The translations under genes and the position numbers were made by a program. The notes below the pieces were generated by a model. It did not search any database, had not been told where the DNA came from, and saw only the letters and a program-made list of their open reading frames with translations. A stretch of DNA of 64,000 bases from Ancylobacter sp. SL191 (GTDB taxonomy: Bacteria > Pseudomonadota > Alphaproteobacteria > Rhizobiales > Xanthobacteraceae): the NCBI RefSeq assembly GCF_026625645.1, contig NZ_CP113056.1, positions 1,897,001-1,961,000 of the forward strand, in the 5' to 3' direction. This document shows, in pieces, positions 17,489-56,039 of the stretch (the first letter of the stretch is position 1; each line of letters starts with the position of its first letter).

Positions 17489-18526
17489 TCAGGCCGCCTT
17501 GGCGGACTTGGGCTGGAGCAGCTTGCGGTTGATCAGCGCCTCGGCGATCTGGACCGCGTTGAGCGCGGCGCCCTTGCGCAGATTGTCCGACACGCACCAG
17601 AAGGAGAGGCCGTTCTCCACCGTCGCATCCTCGCGGATGCGCGAGATGTAGGTCGCGTCCTCGCCGGCCGCCTCGTAGGGCGTGATGTAGCCGCCTGGCT
17701 CGCGCTTATCGACCACCAGGATGCCCGGCGCGGCGCGCAGGGCCGCGGTAGCCTCCTCGACGGTGATCGGATTCTCGAACTCGACGTTGACGGCTTCCGA
17801 GTGCGAGATGAAGACAGGAACGCGGACGGCGGTGCAGGTCAGCTTGATCTTGGGATCAAGGATCTTCTTGGTCTCCACCATCACCTTCCATTCCTCCTTC
17901 GTGTAGCCGTCTTCCATGAAGACGTCGATGTGAGGAATGACGTTGAAGGCGATGCGCTTGGGGAACTTCTTAGCCTCTACCGGGTCCGACACGAAGACGG
18001 CGCGGGTCTGCGCGAACAGCTCATCCATGGCGTCCTTGCCGGCGCCGGAGACCGACTGGTAGGTCGCCACGACCACGCGCTTGATGGTCGCCAGATCGTG
18101 CAGCGGCTTCAGCGCCACGACGAGCTGGGCGGTCGAGCAGTTCGGGTTGGCGATGATGTTCTTCTTGGTGAAGCCGGCGAGGGCGTCGGCATTCACCTCG
18201 GGAACCACCAGCGGCACATCGGAATCATAGCGCCAGGCCGAGGAGTTATCGATCACCACGCAGCCCTGGCGGCCGATCTTGGGCGACCACTCCTTGGAGA
18301 CGTCGCCACCGGCCGACATCAGGCAGATGTCGGTGTCCGAGAAGTCATAATTCTCAAGGGCTTTGCACTTCAGGGTCTTGTCGCCGAAGGAGACCTCCGT
18401 TCCCACCGAACGGCGGGAGGCGAGCGCGACGACCTCGTCCGCGGGAAAACCGCGTTCGGCGAGAATGTCGAGCATTTCGCGGCCCACATTGCCCGTGGCA
18501 CCGACGATAGCGACCTTGTAGCCCAT
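17489..18526 (-). CDS. asd: Aspartate-semialdehyde dehydrogenase
   Basis: The enzyme reduces aspartyl phosphate to aspartate semialdehyde with NADPH, the branch point to lysine/diaminopimelate, threonine and methionine. The N-terminal Rossmann motif is VAIVGATGNVGREML. The catalytic cysteine lies in NPNCSTAQLVV near residue 132, and the active-site histidine region is CTAVRVPVFISHSEAV. The 345-residue length matches the family. The ATG at 18526 has AGGAGAG seven bases upstream; the longer in-frame extension to 18721 is unsupported. It is a single-gene unit with its own terminator. Confidence 0.95.
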   Translation of the reverse strand: MGYKVAIVGATGNVGREMLDILAERGFPADEVVALASRRSVGTEVSFGDKTLKCKALENYDFSDTDICLMSAGGDVSKEWSPKIGRQGCVVIDNSSAWRYDSDVPLVVPEVNADALAGFTKKNIIANPNCSTAQLVVALKPLHDLATIKRVVVATYQSVSGAGKDAMDELFAQTRAVFVSDPVEAKKFPKRIAFNVIPHIDVFMEDGYTKEEWKVMVETKKILDPKIKLTCTAVRVPVFISHSEAVNVEFENPITVEEATAALRAAPGILVVDKREPGGYITPYEAAGEDATYISRIREDATVENGLSFWCVSDNLRKGAALNAVQIAEALINRKLLQPKSAKAA

Positions 18527-18875
18527 TGTGTCTCTCCTGACGGCCCTGCCATTCACAGGCTCGGGCGAGGGCGGGCTTTTACGCCGAAAGGCGGATGAGA
18601 GCAAGGTTTCGCCCGCGCCCGCGCGCCTTTGCGACGCTGCCCTCGCCGCGCGCCTCTGCCGCAACGTCACTGCGGCCGGAAGTGAGGATGGAACCACCGC
18701 CGGGCATCGCGGTTGTTCCATACCTCCATCAGGCGCCGGATGAGCCGTCGCGACCCCGCTCTATTATGCAACCTCGTACGATTTCCAGTTGTACGCGCCG
18801 GGGTCCACGCCGCGCCCGCGATGTCTAAAAGCATCCCAAACGGTATCGCCGGGCGGACATTGTCCTATTCTGATG

Positions 18876-18910: not shown

Positions 18911-21049
18911 GTGATGCCCGCGGTACTAATAATTGACGACAGTACGACCAATCGACGCATTTACTCGGAGTTGGCACGCCAGCTTGAGCCTAATGTTTAC
19001 GTGGAGATGTTCGAGAACGGAGCCGAGGCTCTGGAATGGTTGGTGGAGCATCGCGCTGATCTGATCATAACAGATTACAAGATGCCTAAAATGAACGGCG
19101 CCGAGCTGGTCCGCGCCGTTCGTGCCCTGCCGCATCTGCGCGACGTGCCCATCATTGTCGTGACCGCCTATGACGACCGCAAGTTTCGCGTTGCCTCGCT
19201 GGAGGCCGGCGCGACAGATTTTCTGCTGAGCCCGGTGGATCACGTCGAGTTTCTGGCGCGATCGCGAAACCTGTTGAAGCTGCGTCGGCAGCACCTGTTG
19301 CTTGCGGACAGGGCCGAGCAACTGGAGATCAACCTGACCGCAAAGGACCAGTTGCTGCGCGCAAGTCGCGAGGCGCTGGCCCAAGTCATCGACACCGTGC
19401 CCGCTTTCATCAGCGCGTCCGATCTCGATGGCCGCTGCGTGCTGGTGAATGTCCAGCAGGCGGCGTCCATCGGCAAGGTTCCGAACGACCTCGTCGGGCA
19501 GCCGATCGAATCGTTGATCGGTGAGGAGCGCGGGCTTGTCAGCCGTCAGCTTGACCAGATCGTGCTCAGGACAGGAAAGGCGATCGCGCCCCGCGAGGAA
19601 GAGGTCGTCACACCTGGCGGCGACCACTACATCTACCTGACCAACAAGGCGCCGCTGCATGACGGCGCGGGCCGGATCAGCGGCATTCTGACCACCTCGA
19701 TCGACGTGACCCAGCGCCGGCAGATTGAGCTGCGGCTGGAGTATCTGGCCAACCACGATTCGCTGACGGGGCTTCCGAACCGGCTTCTGCTCCGCGATCA
19801 CCTGCGCCGCGAGCTCGCGCGCGGCCGGCGTGGCAATCAGAGCTTCGCGCTGCATTTCATCGATCTGGACCGGTTCAAGGCAATCAATGATGCCCACGGG
19901 CATCACCGGGGCGACCAGCTGCTGCAGGATGTGGCGGAGAGCCTCACGCGCCTGCTCGGTCCGGGCCTGACCGTGGCGCGCCTCGGCGGCGATGAGTTCG
20001 CGGTGCTGCAGCCCGACATTAACGGGCCGGAGGATGCGGAGCGGCTGGCCGTCACGATCCTGAGGATGCTCATTGGCGAGGATGAGAATTCGTCCTCCCC
20101 GCGTATCGGGGCGAGCATCGGCATCACGGTTGCCCCTCTCGACGGCGCTGACCCCGACGACCTGCTGCGCAATTCCGACCAGGCGATGTATCTGGCCAAG
20201 TCGGTCGGCGGCAACACGGTGCGCTTCTTCGCCGCCGATATGGCGCCGCTCGCCAGCCAGCGGGCCCAGATGGAAAGCGACATGCGCGACGCCCTGAAGC
20301 GCCGCGAATTCCTGCTCCACTACCAGCCGCTGGTCGATCTGCGCAGCGGCGATGTCATCGGGACCGAGGCCCTGCTGCGCTGGGCGCACCCACAGCATGG
20401 CCTGCTGGCGCCGGGCGCGTTCCTGAGCCTCGCCGAAGAAAGCGGGCTGATCGTGCCGATCAATGAATGGGTTCTGCGCGAGGCGTGCCGCCAGGGCACG
20501 GTGTGGCGGCAGGCGGGCTTGGGCGATCTGCGCATGGCCGTGAACCTGTCCCCCGTGCAGTTCCGGCGGCAGAAGGTCGGCGAGCTCGTCCGCAGCGTGA
20601 TCGAGGAGAGCGGCTTTGCCCCCGAGCTTCTCGACCTCGAACTGACCGAAGGCATTCTCATCGACTATAATGAGACGGTGTCCGAGCAGATGCGCCTGCT
20701 GCGCTCGCTCGGCGTGAGCCTCTCGGTGGATGACTTCGGGACAGGCTACTCGTCGCTGAACTACATCCGCAATTTTCCGCTGCAGCGCCTGAAGATCGAC
20801 CGGTCCTTCGTGAAGGATCTGGCCATCGACCCGCGTGCGCTCGCCATCGTGCGGACCATCATCGAGCTCGGCCACAACCTCAATCTGAAGGTTCTGGCCG
20901 AGGGCGTCGAGGAGGCGAGCCAGCTTCAGACCCTCCGCGCGGAGGGGTGTGACGAGGTGCAGGGGTACTATTTCAGCCGGCCCGTGCCGGCGGACATGTT
21001 TGTCCAGTGGCTGTCGCACCGGGAGGGTGGGACCAACCCGACGCCATGA
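18911..21049 (+). CDS. Response regulator with PAS, GGDEF and EAL domains (RpfG-position c-di-GMP enzyme)
   Basis: A 712-residue cytoplasmic regulator. The receiver domain (1-120) has acidic D9/D10 and phospho-acceptor D55 (LIITDYKMP), and T85 is present. Where receivers have the conserved lysine of the KP pair it has S107 (FLLSPVD). A PAS-like segment (about 155-270) precedes GGDEF (280-445, RLGGDEFAV at 357-365, no RxxD inhibitory site seen) and EAL (455-705, TEALLRW, VDDFGTGYSS, LAEGVEE). Both c-di-GMP synthesis and breakdown motifs are intact. The receiver resembles that of RpfG. It starts at GTG 18911 or ATG 18914 and lies 14 bases before the RpfC-like kinase gene. Confidence 0.9.
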   Translation: MMPAVLIIDDSTTNRRIYSELARQLEPNVYVEMFENGAEALEWLVEHRADLIITDYKMPKMNGAELVRAVRALPHLRDVPIIVVTAYDDRKFRVASLEAGATDFLLSPVDHVEFLARSRNLLKLRRQHLLLADRAEQLEINLTAKDQLLRASREALAQVIDTVPAFISASDLDGRCVLVNVQQAASIGKVPNDLVGQPIESLIGEERGLVSRQLDQIVLRTGKAIAPREEEVVTPGGDHYIYLTNKAPLHDGAGRISGILTTSIDVTQRRQIELRLEYLANHDSLTGLPNRLLLRDHLRRELARGRRGNQSFALHFIDLDRFKAINDAHGHHRGDQLLQDVAESLTRLLGPGLTVARLGGDEFAVLQPDINGPEDAERLAVTILRMLIGEDENSSSPRIGASIGITVAPLDGADPDDLLRNSDQAMYLAKSVGGNTVRFFAADMAPLASQRAQMESDMRDALKRREFLLHYQPLVDLRSGDVIGTEALLRWAHPQHGLLAPGAFLSLAEESGLIVPINEWVLREACRQGTVWRQAGLGDLRMAVNLSPVQFRRQKVGELVRSVIEESGFAPELLDLELTEGILIDYNETVSEQMRLLRSLGVSLSVDDFGTGYSSLNYIRNFPLQRLKIDRSFVKDLAIDPRALAIVRTIIELGHNLNLKVLAEGVEEASQLQTLRAEGCDEVQGYYFSRPVPADMFVQWLSHREGGTNPTP

Positions 21050-21063
21050 GGTAAGGTGCCGCC

Positions 21064-23544
21064 ATGCGATCCGCCCCGCTCCAGCGCCGCCTGATGTCAC
21101 CGATTCACTGGATCGCGAGCCGCCTGCGCAACCGCGCGGACAGCGAGCACGAGATGAGCTTCAACCGGCTCATCTTTGCCTTCATCATCGTCATCGTTCT
21201 GGCGGTGAACAGCACGACCAGCGACGTCCATGAGTCGCTGCGGGTGATGGCGCTGTACATCGTGCTGGCGCTCGGTGTCCTCGGCCACATCCTCATCCGC
21301 CCTGCCATATCGCGGGCGCGGCGGGTGTTCGCGCTGCTGCTGGATTGCGGGTTTCTCGGCTGGCAGCTGCATCTGGGCGGCGAGGTTGCTGCGCTGTTCT
21401 ACCCGATCTATCTCTGGGTCATCTTCGGCAACGGCTTCCGCTTCGGTGTTGCCGCCCTCCTGACGGCGATACCCGTTGCCGTGCTCAGCTTCGCGACGGT
21501 CATGTGGACCACGCCGTTCTGGCGGGACCAGTGGCACCTGTCCCTCGGTCTGCTAGTCGGCCTTGTCATTCTGCCGGCCTATGCCGGAACCCTCATCCGC
21601 AAATTGTCGACGGCGACCAAGGTGGCGGAGGAGGCGAGCCAGGCCAAGAGTCTGTTCCTGGCGAGCGTCAGCCATGAGCTGCGCACCCCGCTCACCGCCA
21701 TCGTCGGCATGACCGGCCTGCTCCGCGGAACGCCGCTGGCGCGGGATCAGCGCGAGATGGTCGACACCGTCGATGTCGCGACCCGTTCCCTGCGGACCCT
21801 CATCGACGGGCTGCTCGATCTCTCCCGCATCGAGGCCGGGCGCATGCCGGTTCCGCATGCAGCCTTCGATCTCGTCGCGCTGCTGGTCGACGCCCGCCGG
21901 CTGGTCGAGGGGCAGGCGCGCGAGCGCGGACTAAGCTTCAACCTTCATGTGACGCCGCGCACGCCGCTCGATCTCGTCGGCAGCCGCCAGCACCTGCATG
22001 AAGTGTTGCTCAACCTCGCCGGCAATGCGGTGAAATTCACCGAGAAGGGCGGCGTGACCATCGCCGTCGACACCGAGCCTCGGGAGAACGGCCGGCTGAC
22101 CCTCATTATCGAGGTCAGCGACACAGGGATCGGCATCGCCCGCGCCGATCAGGAGCGGATCTTCGAGGACTTCACCCAGGCCGATGCCAGCATCCTCAAC
22201 CGTTTCGGCGGCACCGGCCTCGGCCTCGCGATCACCCGCCGGCTAGTCGCCCTCATGGGGGGCATCATCTCCGTGGACAGCGAGCCGGGCGTCGGGAGCA
22301 CGTTTCGACTGGAAGTGCCAATCGACGGCGCCATCCTCGACGCGGCCCATGCCACACGGGATGCCCCTCCCGTTCTGGTCTGCCGTGATACCGCCCCGCT
22401 CGCCCCGCTGCTCGACACTCTGAGTGAACTCGATCTGCCGCCCGTGATCGCCGATCTCCGGCTCGGGCCGGCCCGGATGTTCTCCCCACAGGCGGCGGGC
22501 GCTGTCCGGCTTCTGTATGAACCGGACACGCGCAACCTTGCTTTGCCGGCGCCTCCCGCCAACTCCCCGCCGCCCGTGCTCGTTCGGCCCGCATCCGAGC
22601 CGGGACTGCCGCCGCTGGAGCTGCGCCGGCTTTATGCGAGCGTGCTCGATGTGGGAGCGCCCGTCCATGAGGTGCAGCGCGCATTGAGACTGGCCCGCCG
22701 CCTTGGCGTGGCCGCGTCACTTGAGGCCGAACCGGCCCCGCCGGTGCCCCGCCTCGCCTGCCAGCTCCTTTTGGTGGACGACAACCGCGTCAACCAGCGT
22801 GTTTTCCAGCGCATTCTGGAGGGCGCCGGCCACAAGGTGCGCGTGGCGGAAACCGGCGAGCAGGCGCTCGACCTTCTCTCGGATGATGCCGACGCGTTCG
22901 ATCTGGTGCTGATGGACTTCAACATGCCCGACATGGACGGGCTGGAAGCCAGCAAGCTCTACCGGATGATGTCGACCGGCGATAATCGCCTGCCCATCGT
23001 CGGCCTCACGGCGGACGCTACCGCGCTCGGTGACAGCCGGTGGCGCGATGCCGGCATGGATGACTGTCTGATCAAGCCGGTGGAGCCGGGTGTTCTTCTG
23101 GCGATGATCGACCGCCGCGCGCGGGCCGGTGATGCCCCGGCGCCGCTGCGGGAGAATGGGGGAAGTCTCGCCTATCTCGACAGCCCGCTGCGGCCGCTGG
23201 ATGACGAGGCCATTGAGAGCCTGTGCCGCCTCGGCGGGCCGCATTTCGCGGCCGAGCTGATGGAGGATTATCTCGAGGATGCGCAGGCCATCATCGGGAG
23301 GCTCACCGCCACGGCCCGGCGGGGCGATGTGATCGGTTTCCGCAACGAGGCGCATGCGCTGCAAAGCAGCTCCGCCAATGTCGGCGCGCTGGCCCTCAGC
23401 GCCCTGTGTCAGCCCTGGCGCGACCTGCGCGGGGATGAGCTTCGCGCCCGCGCCGACGACCTTGATCGTCTGGCGCAACATCAGTTGGCCCGCACCCGCG
23501 TGGCGATGCGGGCCTGTTCGGTGCGCCTGAAGAATGCGGGATAG
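21064..23544 (+). CDS. rpfC: RpfC-like hybrid sensor histidine kinase for a DSF-type signal
   Basis: The 826-residue protein has an N-terminal sensor region (about 20-180) with several transmembrane helices. It contains NRADSEHE and LGGEVAA plus [12 protein letters not shown], segments that match my recollection of the RpfC input region. HisKA carries H204 ([14 protein letters not shown]), and HATPase has [18 protein letters not shown] and GGTGLGLA. A receiver (about 566-690) has [10 protein letters not shown], a phospho-Asp in [11 protein letters not shown], and a KPVEP lysine. A C-terminal HPt domain has its histidine near 763 ([15 protein letters not shown]). Xanthomonas RpfC has the same domain order. 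A GAGGTAAGG site precedes the start at 21064. It is convergent with the rpfF-like gene. Confidence 0.9.
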
Positions 23545-23586
23545 ACGCCCCCGGCGGCCCCAGAGCCGCCAGGGGCAGGTGGCGTG

Positions 23587-24552
23587 TCACTCGGCGGCCG
23601 TCAGCAGCGGCATGGGCGACTGAAGCCCGGCAAGCCGCTTATTCTGGGCGGCGCAGAGCCGGTCCATCTTCCGCAGATCGGCCTCGGTCAGGTTCAGGGC
23701 GGCCTCGGCCCAGATGTCGACCACGTCGATCAGCTCCGCCAGCGTCACCGGGTTCACCCGGCGACGTGCCCGGTAGACGGCGAGGTGCGCGTTATGCTTG
23801 CGGCTGTGGCGCGCAATGTAGTCCATCGCCGCCTGCTGGCCTTGCCCGTCCTCGGCGAGCACGTCGACCACGCCCATGGCGTGCAGTTCCTCGGCGGTAT
23901 GGACCCGGCCGGAGAGAATGAGCGCTTCCGCCTTTGCCCGGTCCATACGCCGCGACAGGAAGCTGTAGGCGCCCATGCCGGGGAACATGTTGAACAGGAT
24001 TTCCGGCAGGCCCATCTTGGCGCTGCGTTCGGCCACGATCAGGTCGAAGGACAGCGCATGCTCGAAGCCGCCTCCCAGCGCGTCGCCCTGCACCAGCGCC
24101 ATGGTGACGACGGGGCTGTCGAAGGCCACCGCATTGCGGTGAATGGCGGTGACGGCGACATGCCCATAATGGCGCATCGCCGCGAGGTCGCGGGTGCGGA
24201 TCCGCGCGGCGAAATGCCCGAGATCGCCGCCGAGATTGTAAATGCCGGGCACGTCCGAGGCCATGACGAACCAGGAGAAGGGGGCCGCCGCCGGGTCCGG
24301 GAGATCGGCGAAGCTGCGGGTGATGGCCCCCTGCAGGCAACTGATGTCGTGCATCAGTTCATGCGTATAGGACGGCTTTCCAACCGGTCGCATGAACGTC
24401 CAGCAAATCGAGTTCACCGTATCGATGCTGAGGCGAAGGTTAGCATAGCCGTTGCCATGTATGGCTTGAACGGCCTCTTCTTGGGCGTGGGTGGCGGGAA
24501 GGGCGGTGACGTCAACCGCGCCGGCGACATGATTCAGGGCAATCAGGGACAC
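23587..24552 (-). CDS. rpfF: RpfF-like DSF synthase (crotonase family)
   Basis: A 321-residue crotonase-fold enzyme matching RpfF, which makes cis-2-unsaturated fatty acid (DSF) signals from acyl-ACP by dehydration and thioesterase action. Diagnostic segments are YNLGGDLGHF, VQGDALGGGFEHALS, MGLPEILFNMFPGMGAYSF, AEELHAMGVVDVLAEDGQG and LRKMDRLCAAQNKRL. The two catalytic glutamates, E164 (GGGFE) and E184 (GLPE), are 20 residues apart, as are E141 and E161 in Xanthomonas RpfF. Ordinary enoyl-CoA hydratases lack the NLGGDL and FPGMGAYSF signatures. The GTG at 24552 has GGAG seven bases upstream; an ATG at 24627 would add 25 residues without a ribosome site. It is convergent with rpfC. Confidence 0.92.
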   Translation of the reverse strand: MSLIALNHVAGAVDVTALPATHAQEEAVQAIHGNGYANLRLSIDTVNSICWTFMRPVGKPSYTHELMHDISCLQGAITRSFADLPDPAAAPFSWFVMASDVPGIYNLGGDLGHFAARIRTRDLAAMRHYGHVAVTAIHRNAVAFDSPVVTMALVQGDALGGGFEHALSFDLIVAERSAKMGLPEILFNMFPGMGAYSFLSRRMDRAKAEALILSGRVHTAEELHAMGVVDVLAEDGQGQQAAMDYIARHSRKHNAHLAVYRARRRVNPVTLAELIDVVDIWAEAALNLTEADLRKMDRLCAAQNKRLAGLQSPMPLLTAAE

Positions 24553-25267: not shown

Positions 25268-27730
25268 ATGACGTGTAACGACCAGGGACTTGGCGCAAGA
25301 TTAATTCACGCATTGCTCATCATACTGGTCGCCGTTTTATTCTATACGATAGGGGATGCCGCGCAGGCGCGACTATACGCGGCGGCTGGGCCGACGCAAG
25401 AGGCCTCCTCCATCGTCGTTGAGGGTAATCAGCGTGTGGATTCGGAGACGATCCGCTCCTATTTCGCGTCGAAGCCGGGCGAGGCGCTGACGCCGGCCAA
25501 GATCGACGAGGGGCTGAAGGCGCTCTACGCGACCGGCCTTTTTTCGGACGTCAATGTCAGCCGCAGCGGCAATCGCCTCGTGGTGCGCGTGACCGAGAAC
25601 GAGGTCATCAACCGCGTGGCGTTTGAGGGCAATCGCAAGATCAAGGACGAGCAGCTCGCCAGCGAGGTTCAGTCCAAGGCCCGCGCGCCGTTCTCCAAGA
25701 CCACGGTGCAGGCCGACACCCAGCGCATCATCGAACTCTACCGCCGCTCGGGCCGCTACGACGTGAAGGTCGTGCCGAAGACCATCGAGCGCGGGCAGGG
25801 CCGTGTCGACCTCGTCTTCGAGATCACCGAGGGCGAGAAGCTCGGCGTCGCCGGCATCGTCTTCGTCGGTAACAAGGCCTTCTCCGAGTACAAGCTCAAG
25901 GAAGAGCTGACCACGACCGAGACCAACTGGCTGTCCTGGATCAAGAACACCGACGTCTATGATGTCGATCGCATCAATTCCGACCAGGAGCTGCTGCGCC
26001 GGTTCTACCTGCGTCACGGCTATGCCGATTTCCGCATCGTCTCGGTGACGGCGGATCTCGACCGCGGCAAGAACGGCTTCATCCTGACCTATGTCATCGA
26101 CGAGGGTCCGCAGTACCGCGTCGGCACGGTGGATGTCGTCTCCAACATCAAGGACGTCGATCCGGCCCGCATCCGCGCGGCGCTGCGCGTGCAGAAGGGT
26201 CAGGTCTACAACGCCGAGCTGGTCGAGAAGTCGGTCGAGAACGCCACGATCGAGGTGTCGAAGAGCGGCTATGCCTTCGCCCAGGTGCGCCCGCGCGGCG
26301 ACCGCGACGTGCAGACCCGCACAATCTCGCTGGTCTTCGCCGTCGAGGAGGGCCCGCGCGTCTATATTGAGCGCATCGAGATCCGCGGCAACACCCGCAC
26401 CCGCGACTGGGTCATCCGTCGCGAGTTCGATCTGGCGGAAGGCGATGCCTATAACCGCGTGCTGATCGACCGCGCCGAACGCCGCCTGCGCAACCTCGGC
26501 TACTTCAAGGACGTGAAGATCACGAATGAACCCGGCACAGCCCCGGATCGGGTGGTTCTGGTCGTGCAGGTCGAGGACCAGCCCACGGGCGAGTTCTCCA
26601 TCTCCGGGGGCTATTCGACCTCCGACGGGTTCATCGGCGAGGTTGCGGTGTCGGAGAAGAACTTCCTCGGTCGCGGTCAATATGTCCGCATAGCGGGCTC
26701 GCTGGGCGAGGACACGCAGGGGCTCGATTTCAATTTCACCGAACCGTATTTCCTCGATTCCCGCGTCGCCGCCGGCTTCGACCTCTACTGGAAGGAGACG
26801 ACCGCGACCTCGACCAGCCCCTATGACACGAGCACGGTCGGCGGCACGCTGCGCGCGGCCCTGCCGCTCACGGACGAGTTCACCCTCGGCCTGCGCTACA
26901 GCCTGTATCAGAAAGAGATCACGATCGACGAAGACACGATCGAGGATTACGGCACGCCGTCCTGGGCGCTGCTGGAGGTGAACGGCGATCCGGCCATCAC
27001 CTCGGCCATCGGCTACACGCTCACCTACAACATGCTCGACAACAATAACGGCCCTTCGAACGGCTATCTGCTGGAGTTCAAGCAGGATATGGCCGGGCTG
27101 GGCGGCGATGTGAATTATATCCGCTCGACCTTCGACTCGCGGTTTTATTTCCCGGTCTATGGCGACGTCACCTTCATGGTGCGTGGCCAGGGCGGCAACA
27201 TCGCCTCGTGGGGCGGCGAGGATCTGCGCATCCTCGACAATTTCTTCAAGGGCCCGGATCTGGTGCGCGGCTTCAAGTCGAACGGCATCGGACCCCGCGA
27301 CCTCGCCTCGGGCTGCAGCGACGGCGTGTGCGACAGCTCCGACGCCGATGCGCTGGGCGGCACGGTCTATTGGGGCGCCTCGGCCGAGATGCAGTTCCCG
27401 CTCACCTTCATGCCGAAGGAAATGGGCCTGACGGCTGCCGTGTTCGCCGATGCCGGCTCGATGTGGGACTATCAGGGCGGAACGACCTTCGAGAATGTCT
27501 CCGGCTGGCAGGACAGCCTGACGGACTGCTCGGCCATCGCCGGCTCCAAGACCAAGGGCTATAACAATGTCTGCGTGGCGGACAGCGACTCGATCCGCTC
27601 CTCGGTCGGTGTCAGCCTGATCTGGAAGTCGCCCTTCGGCCCGCTGCGCTTCGATTATGCGTGGGTGCTGACCAAGGAAGATTACGACCAGACGCAGGCT
27701 TTCCGCTTCAGCGGCGGCACCAAGTTCTAG
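25268..27730 (+). CDS. bamA: BamA-type outer-membrane protein assembly factor
   Basis: An Omp85 insertase of 820 residues. A signal-like helix (LLIILVAVLFYTI) precedes five POTRA domains (about 45-420), for example IVVEGNQRVDSETIRSYF, RVAFEGNRKIKDEQLASEV and IEIRGNTRTRDWVIRREF. The 16-strand barrel (about 430-820) contains the conserved loop-6 motif LVRGFKSNGIGPRD and ends RFSGGTKF with a C-terminal aromatic. It folds outer-membrane proteins such as the autotransporter and OmpW in this window. Unusually, the dxr/cdsA/rseP/skp/lpxD neighbours of the housekeeping bamA are absent, and the first codons sit in AT-rich DNA. It may be a second copy. Confidence 0.88.
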   Translation: MTCNDQGLGARLIHALLIILVAVLFYTIGDAAQARLYAAAGPTQEASSIVVEGNQRVDSETIRSYFASKPGEALTPAKIDEGLKALYATGLFSDVNVSRSGNRLVVRVTENEVINRVAFEGNRKIKDEQLASEVQSKARAPFSKTTVQADTQRIIELYRRSGRYDVKVVPKTIERGQGRVDLVFEITEGEKLGVAGIVFVGNKAFSEYKLKEELTTTETNWLSWIKNTDVYDVDRINSDQELLRRFYLRHGYADFRIVSVTADLDRGKNGFILTYVIDEGPQYRVGTVDVVSNIKDVDPARIRAALRVQKGQVYNAELVEKSVENATIEVSKSGYAFAQVRPRGDRDVQTRTISLVFAVEEGPRVYIERIEIRGNTRTRDWVIRREFDLAEGDAYNRVLIDRAERRLRNLGYFKDVKITNEPGTAPDRVVLVVQVEDQPTGEFSISGGYSTSDGFIGEVAVSEKNFLGRGQYVRIAGSLGEDTQGLDFNFTEPYFLDSRVAAGFDLYWKETTATSTSPYDTSTVGGTLRAALPLTDEFTLGLRYSLYQKEITIDEDTIEDYGTPSWALLEVNGDPAITSAIGYTLTYNMLDNNNGPSNGYLLEFKQDMAGLGGDVNYIRSTFDSRFYFPVYGDVTFMVRGQGGNIASWGGEDLRILDNFFKGPDLVRGFKSNGIGPRDLASGCSDGVCDSSDADALGGTVYWGASAEMQFPLTFMPKEMGLTAAVFADAGSMWDYQGGTTFENVSGWQDSLTDCSAIAGSKTKGYNNVCVADSDSIRSSVGVSLIWKSPFGPLRFDYAWVLTKEDYDQTQAFRFSGGTKF

Positions 27731-50100: not shown

Positions 50101-52047
50101 GTGCGCCGGCATTTCCGCGAGATGAATGTCGACATTCGCGTGACGCCTTTCACCGTGGCGGGTGTCGGCGACATGTCGGGCGACGTGTTCGGCAACGGCA
50201 TGATGCTGGAGACCACCATCAAGCTGGTCGCCGCCTTCGATCACCGCGACATCTTCCTCGATCCCAGCCCCGATCCCGTGGCCTCGCTCAAGGAGCGCCA
50301 GCGTCTGTTCGCCCTGCCGCGTTCCTCCTGGCAGGACTATGACAAGTCGCTGATCTCCTCGGGCGGCGGGGTGTTCTCGCGCAGCGCCAAGAGCATTCCG
50401 CTCAGCCCGGCGGTGCGCGAGGCGCTCGGCATCGACAAGAGCTCGGCCTCGCCCGCCGAGGTGATGAGCGCGATCCTGCGCGCGCCGGTCGACCTGCTCT
50501 GGTTCGGCGGCATCGGCACCTATATCCGTGCCTCCGCCGAGACCGACGCGCAGGCCGGCGACCGCGCCAATGACGCCATCCGCATCGCCGGCGCGGAGGT
50601 GCGCGCCAAGGTGGTCGGCGAGGGCGCCAATCTCGGCGTGACCCAGCGCGCGCGCATCGAGGCCGCCCGGCGTGGCATCCGCCTCAACACCGACGCCATC
50701 GACAATTCGGCTGGCGTGAACACTTCGGACGTTGAGGTGAACATCAAGATCGCGCTGGTGCCCGCCGCGCGCGACGGCCGGCTCGACGCCGACAGCCGCA
50801 AGGCGCTGCTCGCCTCAATGACCGATGAGGTGGCCGCGCTGGTGCTGCGCAACAACTACCTGCAGACGCTCGCCCTCTCGCTCGCCGAGCGGCGGGCGCT
50901 GGACGAGCTCGGCTTCCACCAGCGGCTGATGCAGCAGCTTGAAGTGCGCGGCCTGCTCGACCGCACGGTGGAGTATCTGCCGGGCGATGCGGAGCTGAAC
51001 GAGCGGCGCGGGCGCGGCGAGGGTCTCAGCCGGCCCGAGCTCGCGGTGCTGCTGGCCTATGCCAAGCTTACCGCCCATTCCGACCTGCTCGACACCGACG
51101 TGCCGGATGATCCCTATCTCGCCCGCGAACTCGCCGCCTATTTCCCGCCGGAGCTGAATGCCCGCTTCGCCGACGGCATTGACGGCCACCGGCTGCGGCG
51201 CGACATCATCGCCACGCGCCTGTGCAACGCCATGATCAACCATGGCGGGCCGGCTTTTGTGGCCCGGCTCACCGACGAGACCGGCGCCGATGTCGGCTCC
51301 ATCGCCAAGGCCTATGCGGCGACGCGCGACAGCTTCGGCCTCGGGGCTCTGGAGAACGAGATCGACGCGCTGGACGGCACCGTGCCGGGCGCGGTGCAGC
51401 TCGCCCTCTATGCGGCGGTCAAGGACATGCTGCTCGACCGCACCGTGTGGTTCCTGCGCAATGTCGATCTGCGCCAGAGCCTTGATGAGCTGGTCTCCCA
51501 CTACTCGGCCGGCATCGGCCCGGTGGAAGACGTGCTGGGCGGCGTGGTGCGCGAACTCGTGCCGGAAGAGACGCGGGCGACCCATGACGCCCATGTCGCC
51601 GCGTGGACACAGGCCGGCGTGCCGGAGGCGCTGGCCCGGCGCATCGCGCGGCTCTCGGCCATCGAGAGCTCGACCGACATTGTCATGATCGCTGACCGCA
51701 CCAATTCCGCGATCAGCGATGTGGCAACGACCTTCTTCGCCGTCGGCCTGCATTTCCGGCTCGACCGGATCCTGGGCCCGGCGCAGGCGCTCTCCGTGCC
51801 CGACTATTATGACCGGCTCGCGCTGGAGCGGGCGCTCGCCGCCTTCGAGATCGCGGTGCGGCGACTGACGGCTGAAGTCATCACCGAGCACGGGCCGGGC
51901 GCGGCGGGTGTCGCGGCCTGGGCGGCGGCGCGTGGCGCGGTGGTGGAGCGGGCACGCAACGGCGTCTATGAGATCGTCGGCTCGGGGCTTTCCGTGTCGA
52001 AGCTCTCGGTGGCCGCGAGCCTGATCGGCGATCTCGTGCGGGCCTGA
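47191..52047 (+). CDS. gdhB: Large NAD-specific glutamate dehydrogenase (180-kDa class)
   Basis: A protein of about 1618 residues that oxidises glutamate to 2-oxoglutarate and ammonia with NAD. The N-terminal half holds ACT-type regulatory segments (VEIVNDDMPFLLDSVMAAL near 95; VLVFVPRDRYGSEVREEI). The catalytic core begins near residue 800 with GRVARGGLRWSDRPQDFRTE and VIVPVGAKGGFVPKQLP, then the NAD domain (DMSGDVFGNGMML; FGGIGTYIRASAET; KVVGEGANLGVTQRARIE). A helical C-terminal domain follows. Length matches the class. Starts at 47176, 47188 and 47191 are in frame; GGAGG at 47179-47183 favours 47188 or 47191. Confidence 0.93.
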   Translation: MGVEGFLSTEDERAARQLVEQADLILQARDGDIPPLFASRLFGRAVAEDVRLYTPHELAALAQRAYAHLARRSPGTADVRVEIPEAEGERLARVSVVEIVNDDMPFLLDSVMAALNARGLTASLVVHPLLAVERNSAGMLEGVSGTDSPAGQRARRESLIHIHVARIENEGERAAIAAELTLVLARVRAAVRDWKAMTGQVRATQADLANAPPSVPREEVEEASAFLEWLLTGNFTFLGCRHYDARPSADGAVTVANFDRRMADALGVLADEEFRLFRRASDARAVSTDLADVLAEATPLIITKSRTLSVVHRRAWIDVVVIKRYDAEGRVIGGLALAGLFTNTAYTGSVRAIPILRRKAAAVLVRAGFVPDSHSGRALVKVLESFPRDDLFQMDPETLYQFAIAVLQLDEHPRVRVLAWRDRFARFMSVLVFVPRDRYGSEVREEIGALLETSFGGQVAASRPLFLEGPLTRVHVIVELTGEAAREPGRVELEEAVAGIIRTWDDAFAAALGLVFSPGQATLLARRYGEAFPAGYQSGYTPEEALGDLRLVERLSEANPVAVEFHRPAAVQGRERIALKVFSHGVPRLLSERVPMLEAMGFIVVDERTFTISPEGREPVYLHDMVLGRRGGGAIELESLESRLHATLMAVLRGQAESDGFNALALNARLGWRDIALLRTLARYLRQIGLPFSQDYLWATLNGHAALVDRLVALFHARFEPGADEGRGAREAAIREEIEAALADVQSLDEDRILRHFANLIGAAVRTNFFQITEEGGPRPTIAIKFRSREVEGLPLPRPLFEIFVHSPRVEGIHLRFGRVARGGLRWSDRPQDFRTEVLGLVKAQQVKNAVIVPVGAKGGFVPKQLPSGPRDAIQAEGTEAYKLFVTSLLEVTDNIEGTEIVHPAHTVRHDEDDPYLVVAADKGTATFSDTANAISQARGFWLGDAFASGGSVGYDHKAMGITARGAWEAVRRHFREMNVDIRVTPFTVAGVGDMSGDVFGNGMMLETTIKLVAAFDHRDIFLDPSPDPVASLKERQRLFALPRSSWQDYDKSLISSGGGVFSRSAKSIPLSPAVREALGIDKSSASPAEVMSAILRAPVDLLWFGGIGTYIRASAETDAQAGDRANDAIRIAGAEVRAKVVGEGANLGVTQRARIEAARRGIRLNTDAIDNSAGVNTSDVEVNIKIALVPAARDGRLDADSRKALLASMTDEVAALVLRNNYLQTLALSLAERRALDELGFHQRLMQQLEVRGLLDRTVEYLPGDAELNERRGRGEGLSRPELAVLLAYAKLTAHSDLLDTDVPDDPYLARELAAYFPPELNARFADGIDGHRLRRDIIATRLCNAMINHGGPAFVARLTDETGADVGSIAKAYAATRDSFGLGALENEIDALDGTVPGAVQLALYAAVKDMLLDRTVWFLRNVDLRQSLDELVSHYSAGIGPVEDVLGGVVRELVPEETRATHDAHVAAWTQAGVPEALARRIARLSAIESSTDIVMIADRTNSAISDVATTFFAVGLHFRLDRILGPAQALSVPDYYDRLALERALAAFEIAVRRLTAEVITEHGPGAAGVAAWAAARGAVVERARNGVYEIVGSGLSVSKLSVAASLIGDLVRA

Positions 52048-52079
52048 GGCCGGCTCGTCGTCCGCACAACTGGTCGGCC

Positions 52080-52847
52080 TCAGGCCGGCCAGTTCACCGG
52101 CGGCAGCGCCTCCAGCGCCGGGCGGGCGAAGAGGTAGCCCTGCGCCAGCGGGATGCCGAGGGCGCGCAACGCCGCGAGCTCGGCAGGAGTTTCCACCCCT
52201 TCGGCGATGAGCGTGATGCCCAGTTCGGTGGCGAGACCCACCAGCGCTCGCAGGATCGCCTGCTGGCGCGGCGCCGCCTCGACCCCGCGCACCAGCTTCA
52301 TGTCGATCTTCACCACGTCGGGGGTTAGGTCCGCCAGCAGGTTGAGCCCGGCAAAGCCGGCGCCGAAATCATCAATGGCGACGGTAAAGCCGAGGCCGCG
52401 ATAGGCGGTGACGATGTCTTCGAGGTGCGCGGCGTCGATGACCCGCTCATTCTCGGTGAACTCGAACATCAGCCGGCTCGGGTCGAAACGGTGCTGCCGG
52501 CACGCCTGCAGCGTGGCGCGGATGCAGGTCTCCGCGCGGTAGACCGCGTTGGGCTGGAAATTGACCGAGAGAAGTGAGCCGTCCTCAGGAAACAGCCGGC
52601 TGGCCAGTTCGATCGCCTTGGCGCGGCAGTCCTGATCGAAGCGGTAGCGATTGGCGTCGGTCACCTTTGCCAGAATATCCCCGGCGGGTTCACCGGCGGG
52701 TCCGCGCACCAGCGCCTCGTGGGCCCATACGCGGCGGGCGGCGATGTCCACGATGGGCTGGAACGCCATGGTGAAGCCGAAGTCCAGCGGCTCTCCCTGA
52801 CAGCCTTCACAAAGACGATTGGGCACGGCTATCCACGCTCCGACCAA
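52080..52847 (-). CDS. EAL domain protein (YcgF/BluF-type c-di-GMP phosphodiesterase)
   Basis: A 255-residue protein that is essentially one EAL domain. It has FQPIVDIAARRVWAHEALVRG with the EAL motif, LSVNFQPNAV, MFEFTENERV, VAIDDFGAGFAG, VVKIDMKLVRG and LIAEGVETPAELA. The residues needed for metal binding and catalysis appear present, so c-di-GMP hydrolysis is likely. A short N-terminus has CEGCQ, a possible metal or redox site. It is convergent with the GDH gene, with only 32 bases between, and next to the AT-rich TIR island. Confidence 0.86.
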   Translation of the reverse strand: MVGAWIAVPNRLCEGCQGEPLDFGFTMAFQPIVDIAARRVWAHEALVRGPAGEPAGDILAKVTDANRYRFDQDCRAKAIELASRLFPEDGSLLSVNFQPNAVYRAETCIRATLQACRQHRFDPSRLMFEFTENERVIDAAHLEDIVTAYRGLGFTVAIDDFGAGFAGLNLLADLTPDVVKIDMKLVRGVEAAPRQQAILRALVGLATELGITLIAEGVETPAELAALRALGIPLAQGYLFARPALEALPPVNWPA

Positions 52848-53002
52848 TCTGCGGACACCTATTTCATTGTGGGTTACTCAAGCCTTTCGATATCGGCGTC
52901 AAAGCGAAAGACGGATCTAATATGATAATCCTGCAGTCGACAAGGCTTACTTAGAAAATATTGCACGTCTACGCTTTCGTCGGTAATATTTCTCTATGTC
53001 TA

Positions 53003-53869
53003 TCAAAAAGGCACTTCATCATCAAGACTTAAGTCATTTGCTCTGGCGCGATCAATTTTGAGTCTATCTTCAATAGATTTGATATCGGATATTATACCCC
53101 TTCTGTTCTTGTCGTTTATCGAACGGGTTTCGGCAATTTCTGTTCTTAATGACCCAAGTATATCAAATAAATGACCATAGTCGCTATCCACTAACATTAT
53201 CCTATCAATTATGCTTTCGATTGACTTTATAACAGTTTTATATGCTGTATATTCATATGGTAATGGATTGGCTGTATGATTTGTAGGTTTGTTAGAATTA
53301 ATATTTCTTGTTAATAGTAATATCTCTTCAATTAGATCCCTATCTGATCTTACGTCTTCTTTCTTGCCGTTTTTGCTTTTGTGCTGATTGACCGTGTCTG
53401 TTATGGTTGCGTTGAGATCAGGCCACCATTTTTCGAAAACCGAATTTGCAACTTCTTCATTAAGGCGGTGTTCGCCAATTGCTGAATTCATCATAAGGAA
53501 CAGTTTTTTAGTCTCTTCCTTATCAAATTTTGTCGCTTGGAACTGAGCTAAGGGGCCCGACACGTCTGTTGGCTCCAGGTCAAATAGAATCGGACATACA
53601 TGTGATATGCCAATGCTTCTGGAGACGGCGCCAGCTTCGAACATAATCCAGTTACTATCGAGATTGTCTTTAGTAAGAAAAATCAAACAGATACTAGAAG
53701 AGTGAAGCTCTTTTTCGATTTCAGAGCTCCAGCGCTTGCCCTTTTCTATATCCTTTGGAGAAAAATAGGGCTTTGCAGCCTGAAGGACGCTGGGAATCCA
53801 ATTGTGGTATATTTGTGCAATCTTTTCACTTAATTCGCCGGACCAACTTAGAAAAACTCGCATGGACAT
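53003..53869 (-). CDS. TIR domain protein in an AT-rich island
   Basis: A 288-residue protein. The TIR fold covers about 1-140: MRVFLSWSGELSEKIA (strand A), a VLQAAKPYFSPKDIEKGKRW segment, SSSICLIFLTKDN, then SNWIMFEAGA with the candidate catalytic E78 four residues after W74. This pattern belongs to bacterial TIR proteins that cleave NAD or make cADPR-type signals in anti-phage defence. The C-terminal part (about 160-288) is Lys/Asp-rich and helical, possibly coiled coil, with no recognised domain. Codon use is strikingly AT-rich beside its neighbours, so it was probably acquired. No ThsA or other partner gene lies next to it. Confidence 0.86.
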   Translation of the reverse strand: MSMRVFLSWSGELSEKIAQIYHNWIPSVLQAAKPYFSPKDIEKGKRWSSEIEKELHSSSICLIFLTKDNLDSNWIMFEAGAVSRSIGISHVCPILFDLEPTDVSGPLAQFQATKFDKEETKKLFLMMNSAIGEHRLNEEVANSVFEKWWPDLNATITDTVNQHKSKNGKKEDVRSDRDLIEEILLLTRNINSNKPTNHTANPLPYEYTAYKTVIKSIESIIDRIMLVDSDYGHLFDILGSLRTEIAETRSINDKNRRGIISDIKSIEDRLKIDRARANDLSLDDEVPF

Positions 53870-53875
53870 TAACTC

Positions 53876-53904
53876 CCCGACATATCAGTAGTTGATATGT
53901 CGGG
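53876..53904. repeat. Perfect 12-base inverted repeat overlapping the TIR gene ribosome site
   Basis: CCCGACATATCA and TGATATGTCGGG flank a five-base GTAGT centre. The TIR-proximal arm contains the CCCC that, on the minus strand, is the GGGGAG ribosome site of the TIR gene, whose ATG is at 53869. It lies 25 bases past the acs stop. No T-run follows on either strand, so it is more likely an operator or an RNA hairpin that hides the ribosome site than a standard terminator. Confidence 0.8.
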
Positions 53905-53928
53905 AAGCCTAATTGTCAACGCTGTCAA

Positions 53929-55887
<1,959 letters not shown>

Positions 55888-56039
55888 GGCGTTTACTCCC
55901 CCTTGGGCGGGCACTGGGCGCCGCTCTTGCTCCGGCGCTGAGCGCCGTTTTGCTTTCGCTCGGATTATGGTGACGCGCCCCCGGTGGGACAAGCCAGCGG
56001 CCGCGCGACTTTGGTCGGTATGTAGTTGTCCTGAAAGGC

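What the first reader, a model, noticed from the sequence alone, without database searches (positions are those of the whole stretch)
18911..24552. Complete DSF (Rpf) quorum-sensing module in an alphaproteobacterium, with a GGDEF-EAL regulator instead of RpfG
An RpfF-like synthase (both catalytic Glu residues kept at the RpfF spacing) is convergent with an RpfC-like hybrid kinase, as in Xanthomonas. The gene where rpfG would sit encodes an RpfG-like receiver fused to PAS-GGDEF-EAL. The output would be c-di-GMP synthesis and breakdown rather than HD-GYP hydrolysis. It merges the Xanthomonas two-component design with the PAS-GGDEF-EAL effector type of the Burkholderia RpfR system. I know of few DSF systems described in this order.
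Basis: partly seen in the sequence, partly recalled or inferred. Interest (0 to 1): 0.88.

Follow-up and report, generated by a model that had tools for sequence, protein, structure and literature searches.

The report
Quorum-sensing module with swapped c-di-GMP output
An alphaproteobacterium carries a fatty-acid (DSF-type) cell-to-cell signalling module like that of Xanthomonas, but the protein that should act on the signal has a different enzyme end, and relatives suggest that this end has been exchanged several times behind the same receiver.

Summary
Three genes lie at 18911-24552: a REC-PAS-GGDEF-EAL response regulator, an RpfC-like hybrid kinase in tandem, and a convergent RpfF-like crotonase.

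Best PDB matches of the synthase, by sequence and by fold, are RpfF/DfsA structures. The kinase keeps 4 of 5 membrane-proximal residues that Xanthomonas RpfC needs to sense DSF. The receiver groups with RpfG receivers, apart from 20 other receivers of this genome. The genome has no HD-GYP domain.

The arrangement is widespread. Across 161 loci (some genomes twice), RpfC has near it the same receiver fused to GGDEF-EAL (77), a histidine kinase (25), HD-GYP (8), or no catalytic output (8). The best quick RpfC tree needs 8 changes of output. The window's copy probably came from Acetobacterales by horizontal transfer.

The effector is not RpfR. DSF production, sensing and c-di-GMP turnover are inferred, not shown. 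New variant of a known kind.

The parts
18911..21049 (+). Response regulator REC-PAS-GGDEF-EAL, 712 aa, at the position of rpfG (GTG start; ATG at 18914)
   Evidence: Pfam: Response_reg aa 5-116, PAS_4 161-271, GGDEF 280-435, EAL 457-691; receiver clade with RpfG receivers
18923..19258 (+). RpfG-type receiver; phospho-Asp D55 (codon at 19073); the usual receiver Lys is Ser107 (codon at 19229)
19391..19723 (+). PAS domain (PAS_4), joined to the receiver by one long predicted helix (residues 110-161 of the REC-PAS model)
19748..20215 (+). GGDEF domain, GGDEF motif intact at codon 19985; no RxxD at the usual I-site place
20279..20983 (+). EAL domain, EALLR motif intact (E486, codon at 20366)
21064..23544 (+). 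RpfC-like hybrid histidine kinase, 826 aa (likely start ATG at 21094, 816 aa): membrane sensor, HisKA, HATPase_c, REC, Hpt
21133..21156 (+). N-terminal motif RADSEHEM: Xcc RpfC R15, D17, S18, E19 kept; Q22 replaced by M
22768..23109 (+). Receiver domain of the RpfC-like kinase (D618, codon at 22915); in Xanthomonas the equivalent domain binds RpfF
   Evidence: PMC4504480 passages
23254..23478 (+). Hpt domain (H764, codon at 23353)
23587..24552 (-). RpfF-like DSF synthase candidate, 321 aa from GTG at 24552 (open frame to 24627); catalytic Glu codons at 24061-24063 and 24001-24003

Best explanation
A DSF-type autoinducer circuit. The RpfF-like enzyme makes a cis-2-enoic acid from a 3-hydroxyacyl-ACP (inferred from family). 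The signal acts on the RpfC-like N-terminus next to the membrane and activates the kinase (inferred from conserved sensing residues). Phosphate passes HisKA-REC-Hpt to the RpfG-type receiver of the neighbouring regulator, which through its long helix and PAS sets the balance of GGDEF synthesis and EAL breakdown of c-di-GMP (inferred from intact motifs). So cell density would set c-di-GMP as in Xanthomonas, but through an enzyme that could drive it either way. Shown here: homology, shared receiver, recurring gene set, no HD-GYP domain in the genome. Not shown: signal, phosphotransfer, enzyme activity.
For: PDB hits of the synthase: RpfF/DfsA chains first by sequence (5.6e-48 to 9.5e-46, next crotonase 1.5e-15) and by fold (12 chains at 3.0e-21 to 3.7e-19, next 1.4e-12). 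RpfC sensor motif. Kinase receiver hits RpfC receiver 3m6m_D, among many receivers. Regulator receiver: 41 module receivers, 6 of them from HD-GYP RpfG-type proteins, are one side of a branch, 98/92, against 20 own-genome and 10 RpfC receivers. REC-PAS-GGDEF-EAL proteins group together, 95/98. Gene set in 17 of 38 order loci. No HD_5 match in the genome. Distances of RpfF, RpfC and receiver go together across 111 loci, Spearman 0.54-0.69 (shared ancestry alone also gives this).
Against: The synthase misses NCBI's RpfF equivalog cut-off (200.7 against 550 bits), though synthases of loci with rpfC and an HD-GYP rpfG miss it too (L149 361, L156 236). Q22, needed for full DSF sensing in Xcc, is M here and M, I or L in 70 of 77 GGDEF-EAL loci. 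The receiver lacks the conserved Lys (S or T in 108 of 110 such receivers, 2 unread), so ordinary phospho-switching is uncertain. Two same-genus genomes have no synthase relative at E <= 1e-30, so it is not a core function.
Confidence: 0.68

Rival explanations
1. The RpfF-like enzyme is an acyl-ACP thioesterase or hydratase of fatty-acid metabolism and the kinase reads cellular or environmental fatty acids; there is no dedicated cell-to-cell signal.
For: By NCBIfam cut-offs it is only a crotonase family protein (PRK08788); RpfF enzymes also have broad thioesterase activity (PMC4504480 passages); Q22 replaced.
Against: RpfF-type fold and sequence match; linkage to the RpfC-type sensor in several orders; synthase, kinase and GGDEF-EAL trees place the window's group with the same Acetobacterales relatives.
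Confidence: 0.15
2. The regulator does not work by phosphorylation-driven enzyme switching. The receiver without Lys is a docking module, and REC-PAS is the working part (it binds RpfC, RpfF or a ligand); GGDEF-EAL is one of several add-ons.
For: S or T for Lys in 108 of 110 receivers with GGDEF-EAL, kinase or no output (2 unread) against K in 7 and R in 1 of 8 HD-GYP ones; REC-PAS kept without catalytic output in 7 loci, with GAF-PAS in one; a PAS-like domain of RpfR binds RpfF (PMC6361424 passages).
Against: By pattern match the phospho-Asp is kept in 109 of these 110, and the GGDEF and ExLxR motifs in 70 and 77 of the 77 GGDEF-EAL proteins.
Confidence: 0.12
3. Eavesdropping: the module mainly senses DSF-family acids of other bacteria, and RpfF tunes or titrates the kinase, as the RpfF-RpfC interaction in Xanthomonas and the role of RpfF in Xylella signalling suggest.
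For: Patchy, probably transferred module; RpfF as signalling partner in Xylella (PMC4504480 passages).
Against: Both catalytic Glu are invariant in the 11 synthases aligned.
Confidence: 0.05

Closest known systems
Xanthomonas RpfF/RpfC/RpfG DSF system
   Same: RpfF convergent with rpfC; regulator gene next to rpfC with an RpfG-type receiver; RpfC sensor residues R15, D17, S18, E19; c-di-GMP as expected output
   Different: Output REC-PAS-GGDEF-EAL instead of REC-HD-GYP; receiver Lys is Ser; sensor Q22 is Met; the next long frame beyond rpfF is bamA-like, not an rpfB
Burkholderia/Cronobacter RpfF/RpfR
   Same: RpfF-type synthase and a PAS-GGDEF-EAL protein encoded nearby
   Different: RpfR is a one-component receptor with an N-terminal RpfF-interaction domain (PMC6361424 passages); here an RpfC-type kinase intervenes and the protein starts with a receiver
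Leptospirillum rpfFCG cluster (PMC8357829, passages)
   Same: RpfF, RpfC and regulator in one cluster outside the xanthomonads
   Different: There rpfG is described as HD-GYP and the genes run one way
RpfF loci of other Hyphomicrobiales with a membrane PAS_7-GGDEF-EAL protein (L122 type)
   Same: RpfF-like synthase next to a GGDEF-EAL protein in the same order
   Different: No RpfC and no receiver; the partner has hydrophobic segments at its N-terminus; separate GGDEF-EAL branch

Membership tests
RpfF DSF synthases | Crotonase fold closest to RpfF/DfsA structures | tested here: met
RpfF DSF synthases | Catalytic Glu pair (Xcc E141, E161) and the glycines G85/G86, G138 | tested here: met
   with the alignment; not diagnostic, an ordinary crotonase of this genome has the Glu pair too
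RpfF DSF synthases | NCBIfam NF053515 equivalog cut-off (550 bits) | tested here: not met
   200.7 bits; xanthomonad-type L155 (580) passes, rpfC- and HD-GYP-linked L149 (361) and L156 (236) fail, so the cut-off is narrower than the system. Not filed as that equivalog
RpfF DSF synthases | Makes a cis-2-enoic acid | not testable with these tools
   needs LC-MS
RpfC sensor kinases | Short membrane-proximal sensor with R15, D17, S18, E19, Q22 | tested here: inconclusive
   4 of 5 kept, Q22 to M
RpfC sensor kinases | Membrane sensor plus HisKA, HATPase, REC, Hpt | tested here: met
   a crude hydropathy scan gives five segments, two of them overlapping
RpfG | RpfG-type receiver | tested here: met
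RpfG | HD-GYP output | tested here: not met
   GGDEF-EAL instead; no HD_5 in the genome. Not filed as RpfG
RpfR | N-terminal RpfF-interaction domain, no receiver | tested here: not met
   N-terminus is a receiver. Not filed as RpfR
RpfR | GGDEF-EAL descends from RpfR | not tested
   no Burkholderia RpfR in the trees

The most novel reading that the evidence does not exclude
Alphaproteobacteria hold a large branch of DSF-type signalling, not found described here, built round a constant core, RpfF + RpfC + an RpfG-type receiver that lacks the receiver Lys and mostly carries a PAS, onto which evolution has plugged different outputs: c-di-GMP synthesis and breakdown, a second histidine kinase, or nothing. 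The core, not the output, defines the pathway, and the receiver signals in a non-canonical way, perhaps with the PAS reading the signal or RpfF a second time inside the cell.
Probability: 0.4. Interest if true: 0.78.

Novelty: new variant of a known kind. Interest (0 to 1): 0.62.

Why it matters
DSF signalling is reviewed with two core designs, RpfC/RpfG and RpfR, from plant and human pathogens (PMC4504480 passages). The comparison here points to a third, widespread design in Alphaproteobacteria and a natural series of output swaps behind one receiver. That makes a general question testable: what keeps a quorum-sensing pathway intact when its output enzyme is exchanged.

Tried and rejected
Ordinary enoyl-CoA hydratase: rejected by fold and sequence ranking. 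RpfG elsewhere in the genome: rejected, no HD_5 match (the same search rang in 4 of 14 control genomes). GGDEF-EAL taken from the membrane PAS_7-GGDEF-EAL partners of other RpfF loci: not supported, separate branches. Sensor residue 22 coupled to output type: raw counts look so (Q in 8 of 8 HD-GYP and 23 of 25 kinase loci; M, I or L in 70 of 77 GGDEF-EAL loci), but it changes only twice on the tree and the three independent pairs on supported branches are too few for a test, so it seems to follow RpfC lineage. Native insertion site: five genes from the flanks, among them the asd-like (17489-18721) and bamA-like (25268-27730) ones, were not found beside the module in 21 related loci at E <= 1e-10 (some of these loci are short); no empty site was looked for. 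Promoter and terminator scans gave no clear excess over shuffles. A structure search with the REC-PAS model gave general receiver, sensor kinase and REC-GGDEF matches in the 50 rows listed.

Errors of mine found and mended: the one-clade test that rejected the REC-PAS-GGDEF-EAL group held a wrong label (L217_18 is itself such a protein; corrected). The own-genome receiver controls were partly read in a wrong frame (six flagged for odd letters); one search repeats the test with all 20 in the right frame, with the same outcome.

Full report
What is there. The three open frames are as described. Domains by Pfam: regulator REC-PAS_4-GGDEF-EAL (712 aa); kinase HisKA-HATPase_c-REC-Hpt with a hydrophobic N-terminus (826 aa; an ATG at 21094 would give the 816 aa of database entry P0121); synthase ECH_1. 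Regulator and kinase frames are 14 bases apart; kinase and synthase frames converge with 42 bases between them. The genome is one 4.65-Mb contig with one such synthase; two weaker crotonase matches reach only 2e-12 and 5e-6. The nearest named relatives are Ancylobacter radicis (synthase 90%, kinase 78%, regulator 84% identity) and other Ancylobacter and Kaistia, so the host is probably an Ancylobacter-like member of Xanthobacteraceae (inference).

The synthase. Best PDB sequences are 3m6m (Xanthomonas RpfF), 7zq7 (named RpF-1), 6dgn (Cronobacter RpfF) and 5fus (B. cenocepacia DfsA), E 5.6e-48 to 9.5e-46, followed at a distance by other crotonases from 1.5e-15 (names of 7zq7 and 5fus). The predicted model (mean pLDDT 77.8, 11 sequences) matches twelve chains of these four proteins first, E 3.0e-21 to 3.7e-19, next crotonase 1.4e-12. 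NCBIfam: PRK08788 passed (376 against 177 bits), the RpfF equivalog not (200.7 against 550). As control, the synthase of the xanthomonad-type locus L155 passes (580), but those of L149 (361) and L156 (236), both beside rpfC and an HD-GYP regulator, fail, so this cut-off does not delimit the system.

The kinase. A paper on Xanthomonas RpfC (PMC5391125, passages) reports that R15, D17, S18, E19 and Q22 beside the membrane are needed to sense DSF fully. The window kinase reads RADSEHEM there: four of five kept, Q22 is Met. A database search with its first 200 residues gave 1068 proteins at E <= 0.001; of the best 120 listed, many bear the source name RpfC. Its receiver matches the RpfC receiver of the RpfF-RpfC crystal complex, among many other receivers.

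The regulator. Its receiver scores 86-132 bits against the receivers of 8 HD-GYP proteins beside rpfC and at most 61.3 bits against 20 receivers of its own genome, read in the right frame (one search lists 43 other receiver matches in the genome, of which these 20 were taken); against 10 RpfC receivers at most 54. In a careful tree of 71 receivers the 41 module receivers, whatever their output, are one side of a branch with support 98/92, and in 98% of bootstrap trees. The HD_5 family search found none in this genome. GGDEF and EAL motifs are intact. The REC-PAS model (mean pLDDT 93.4) shows one helix from residue 110 to 161 between the domains. The receiver Lys (its role recalled from CheY) is Ser107. 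Over the loci, this site reads S in 101, T in 7 and is unread in 2 of 110 receivers with GGDEF-EAL, kinase or no output, against K in 7 and R in 1 of 8 HD-GYP ones.

How common, and how it varies. A regulator was counted if its receiver gene lay within about 1.5 kb of rpfC on the same strand or 2.5 kb on either. In a sample of 297 genomes of the order, 39 have the synthase at E <= 1e-40, the window's included. Of these 38 were read with their flanks (G181 was not): 17 have GGDEF-EAL regulator + RpfC + RpfF; 2 have a kinase-output regulator; 14 have RpfF beside a GGDEF-EAL protein without RpfC (one of these, L130, is cut by the contig end); 5 have RpfF without either as a direct neighbour, though L111 has a REC-PAS-GGDEF frame cut by the edge about 7 kb away. 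The class sample with the RpfC sensor rang in 24 of 385 genomes; the 23 besides the window's own were read: 19 kinase output, 3 GGDEF-EAL, 1 no regulator; in 7 of them no RpfF was seen in the stretch. The phylum sample rang in 61 of 398; 20 of its loci were read: 8 HD-GYP, 10 no regulator, 2 GGDEF-EAL. The named collection gave 80 loci, the best of 577: 55 GGDEF-EAL, 8 REC-PAS without catalytic output, 4 kinase, 2 RpfC without regulator, 11 RpfF alone. Together 161 loci, with some genomes twice. Of five kinase-type regulators put to Pfam all have Response_reg and HisKA, four have HATPase_c, L087 lacks it, as does L088; L143 has no PAS hit. L087 and L088 have the regulator gene divergent, 0.7-0.9 kb from rpfC.

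Output swaps. On the best quick RpfC tree (125 rows) the fewest changes of output type are 8 when loci without regulator are left out; many forks of that tree are weak, and starred branches alone force at least 6 changes of the GGDEF-EAL label and 3 of the kinase label, loci without regulator counted. Outputs do not follow RpfC lineage strictly: three loci of one family (L093, L098, L127) combine a Q22-type RpfC with GGDEF-EAL, and two (L087, L088) a Met-type RpfC with a kinase-type regulator. In a careful tree of 54 GGDEF-EAL proteins the 35 REC-PAS-GGDEF-EAL ones are one group, 95/98, so this effector probably arose once and was then moved or lost.

Origin in this genome. In the synthase and kinase trees the Ancylobacter-Kaistia group lies inside an Acetobacterales group with Acidocella and Roseomonas; in the GGDEF-EAL tree it lies with Acidocella too. 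Holding the 39 Hyphomicrobiales RpfC rows together against 26 Acetobacterales and Rhodospirillales rows is rejected (p-AU 2e-7; only rows with GGDEF-EAL or REC-PAS regulators were used, and L182 and L183, gappy, were dropped). In the family sample 8 of 80 genomes have a synthase relative at E <= 1e-30, the seven others at 44-52% identity, and two genomes of the same genus have none. Flank genes of the window's module were not found beside it in 21 related loci.

What is known in print. Ten searches of the open-access library were made. I saw passages of PMC4504480, PMC5391125, PMC9040811, PMC8357829, PMC6361424, PMC8895600 and PMC10226988 and only search listings of the rest. PMC8895600 reports from KEGG that alphaproteobacteria contain the pair RpfC-RpfG; PMC9040811 lists RpfC and RpfG in Acidithiobacillus and Leptospirillum; PMC8357829 describes an HD-GYP rpfG with RpfC in Leptospirillum. 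None of the passages seen describes an RpfC partnered with a REC-PAS-GGDEF-EAL or kinase-output regulator. Most subscription papers and all preprints are outside that library, so absence from print is not shown.

Verdict. The finding is real and its main reading is sound as homology. Function is inferred throughout.

Noticed in passing
window 53003-53869 (-): TIR-domain protein (Pfam TIR_2; PADLOC model TIR-TM, 236 bits) in a G+C dip (0.524 at 52001-54000), between a lone EAL protein (52080-52847) and an acetyl-CoA synthetase-like frame (53929-55992): possible defence gene.
   Followed up: partly
L122, L123, L124, L131, L133-L136, L139-L141, L144, L145: RpfF-like genes next to a protein with 4-8 hydropathy segments, then (Pfam in L122 and L141) PAS_7, GGDEF and EAL, and no RpfC: a possible membrane receptor for a DSF-type signal.
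   Followed up: partly
L191, L195, L196, L199, L202, L204, L208 (Roseomonas and kin): Regulator reduced to REC-PAS with no catalytic output near rpfC and rpfF (Pfam run on L191 only).
   Followed up: partly
L209:6385-8223: RpfG-type receiver fused to PAS-GAF-PAS.
   Followed up: no
L087, L088: Regulator REC-PAS-HisKA without a detected ATPase domain, gene divergent from rpfC.
   Followed up: no
L097:10575-12545, L105:10758-12980: RpfF-like domain at the end of much longer open frames of 656 and 740 aa; Pfam finds only the crotonase domain; the true starts were not sought.
   Followed up: no
L150, L151, L158, L160, L164: RpfF-like proteins beside rpfC in which the second catalytic Glu reads Asp.
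   Followed up: no
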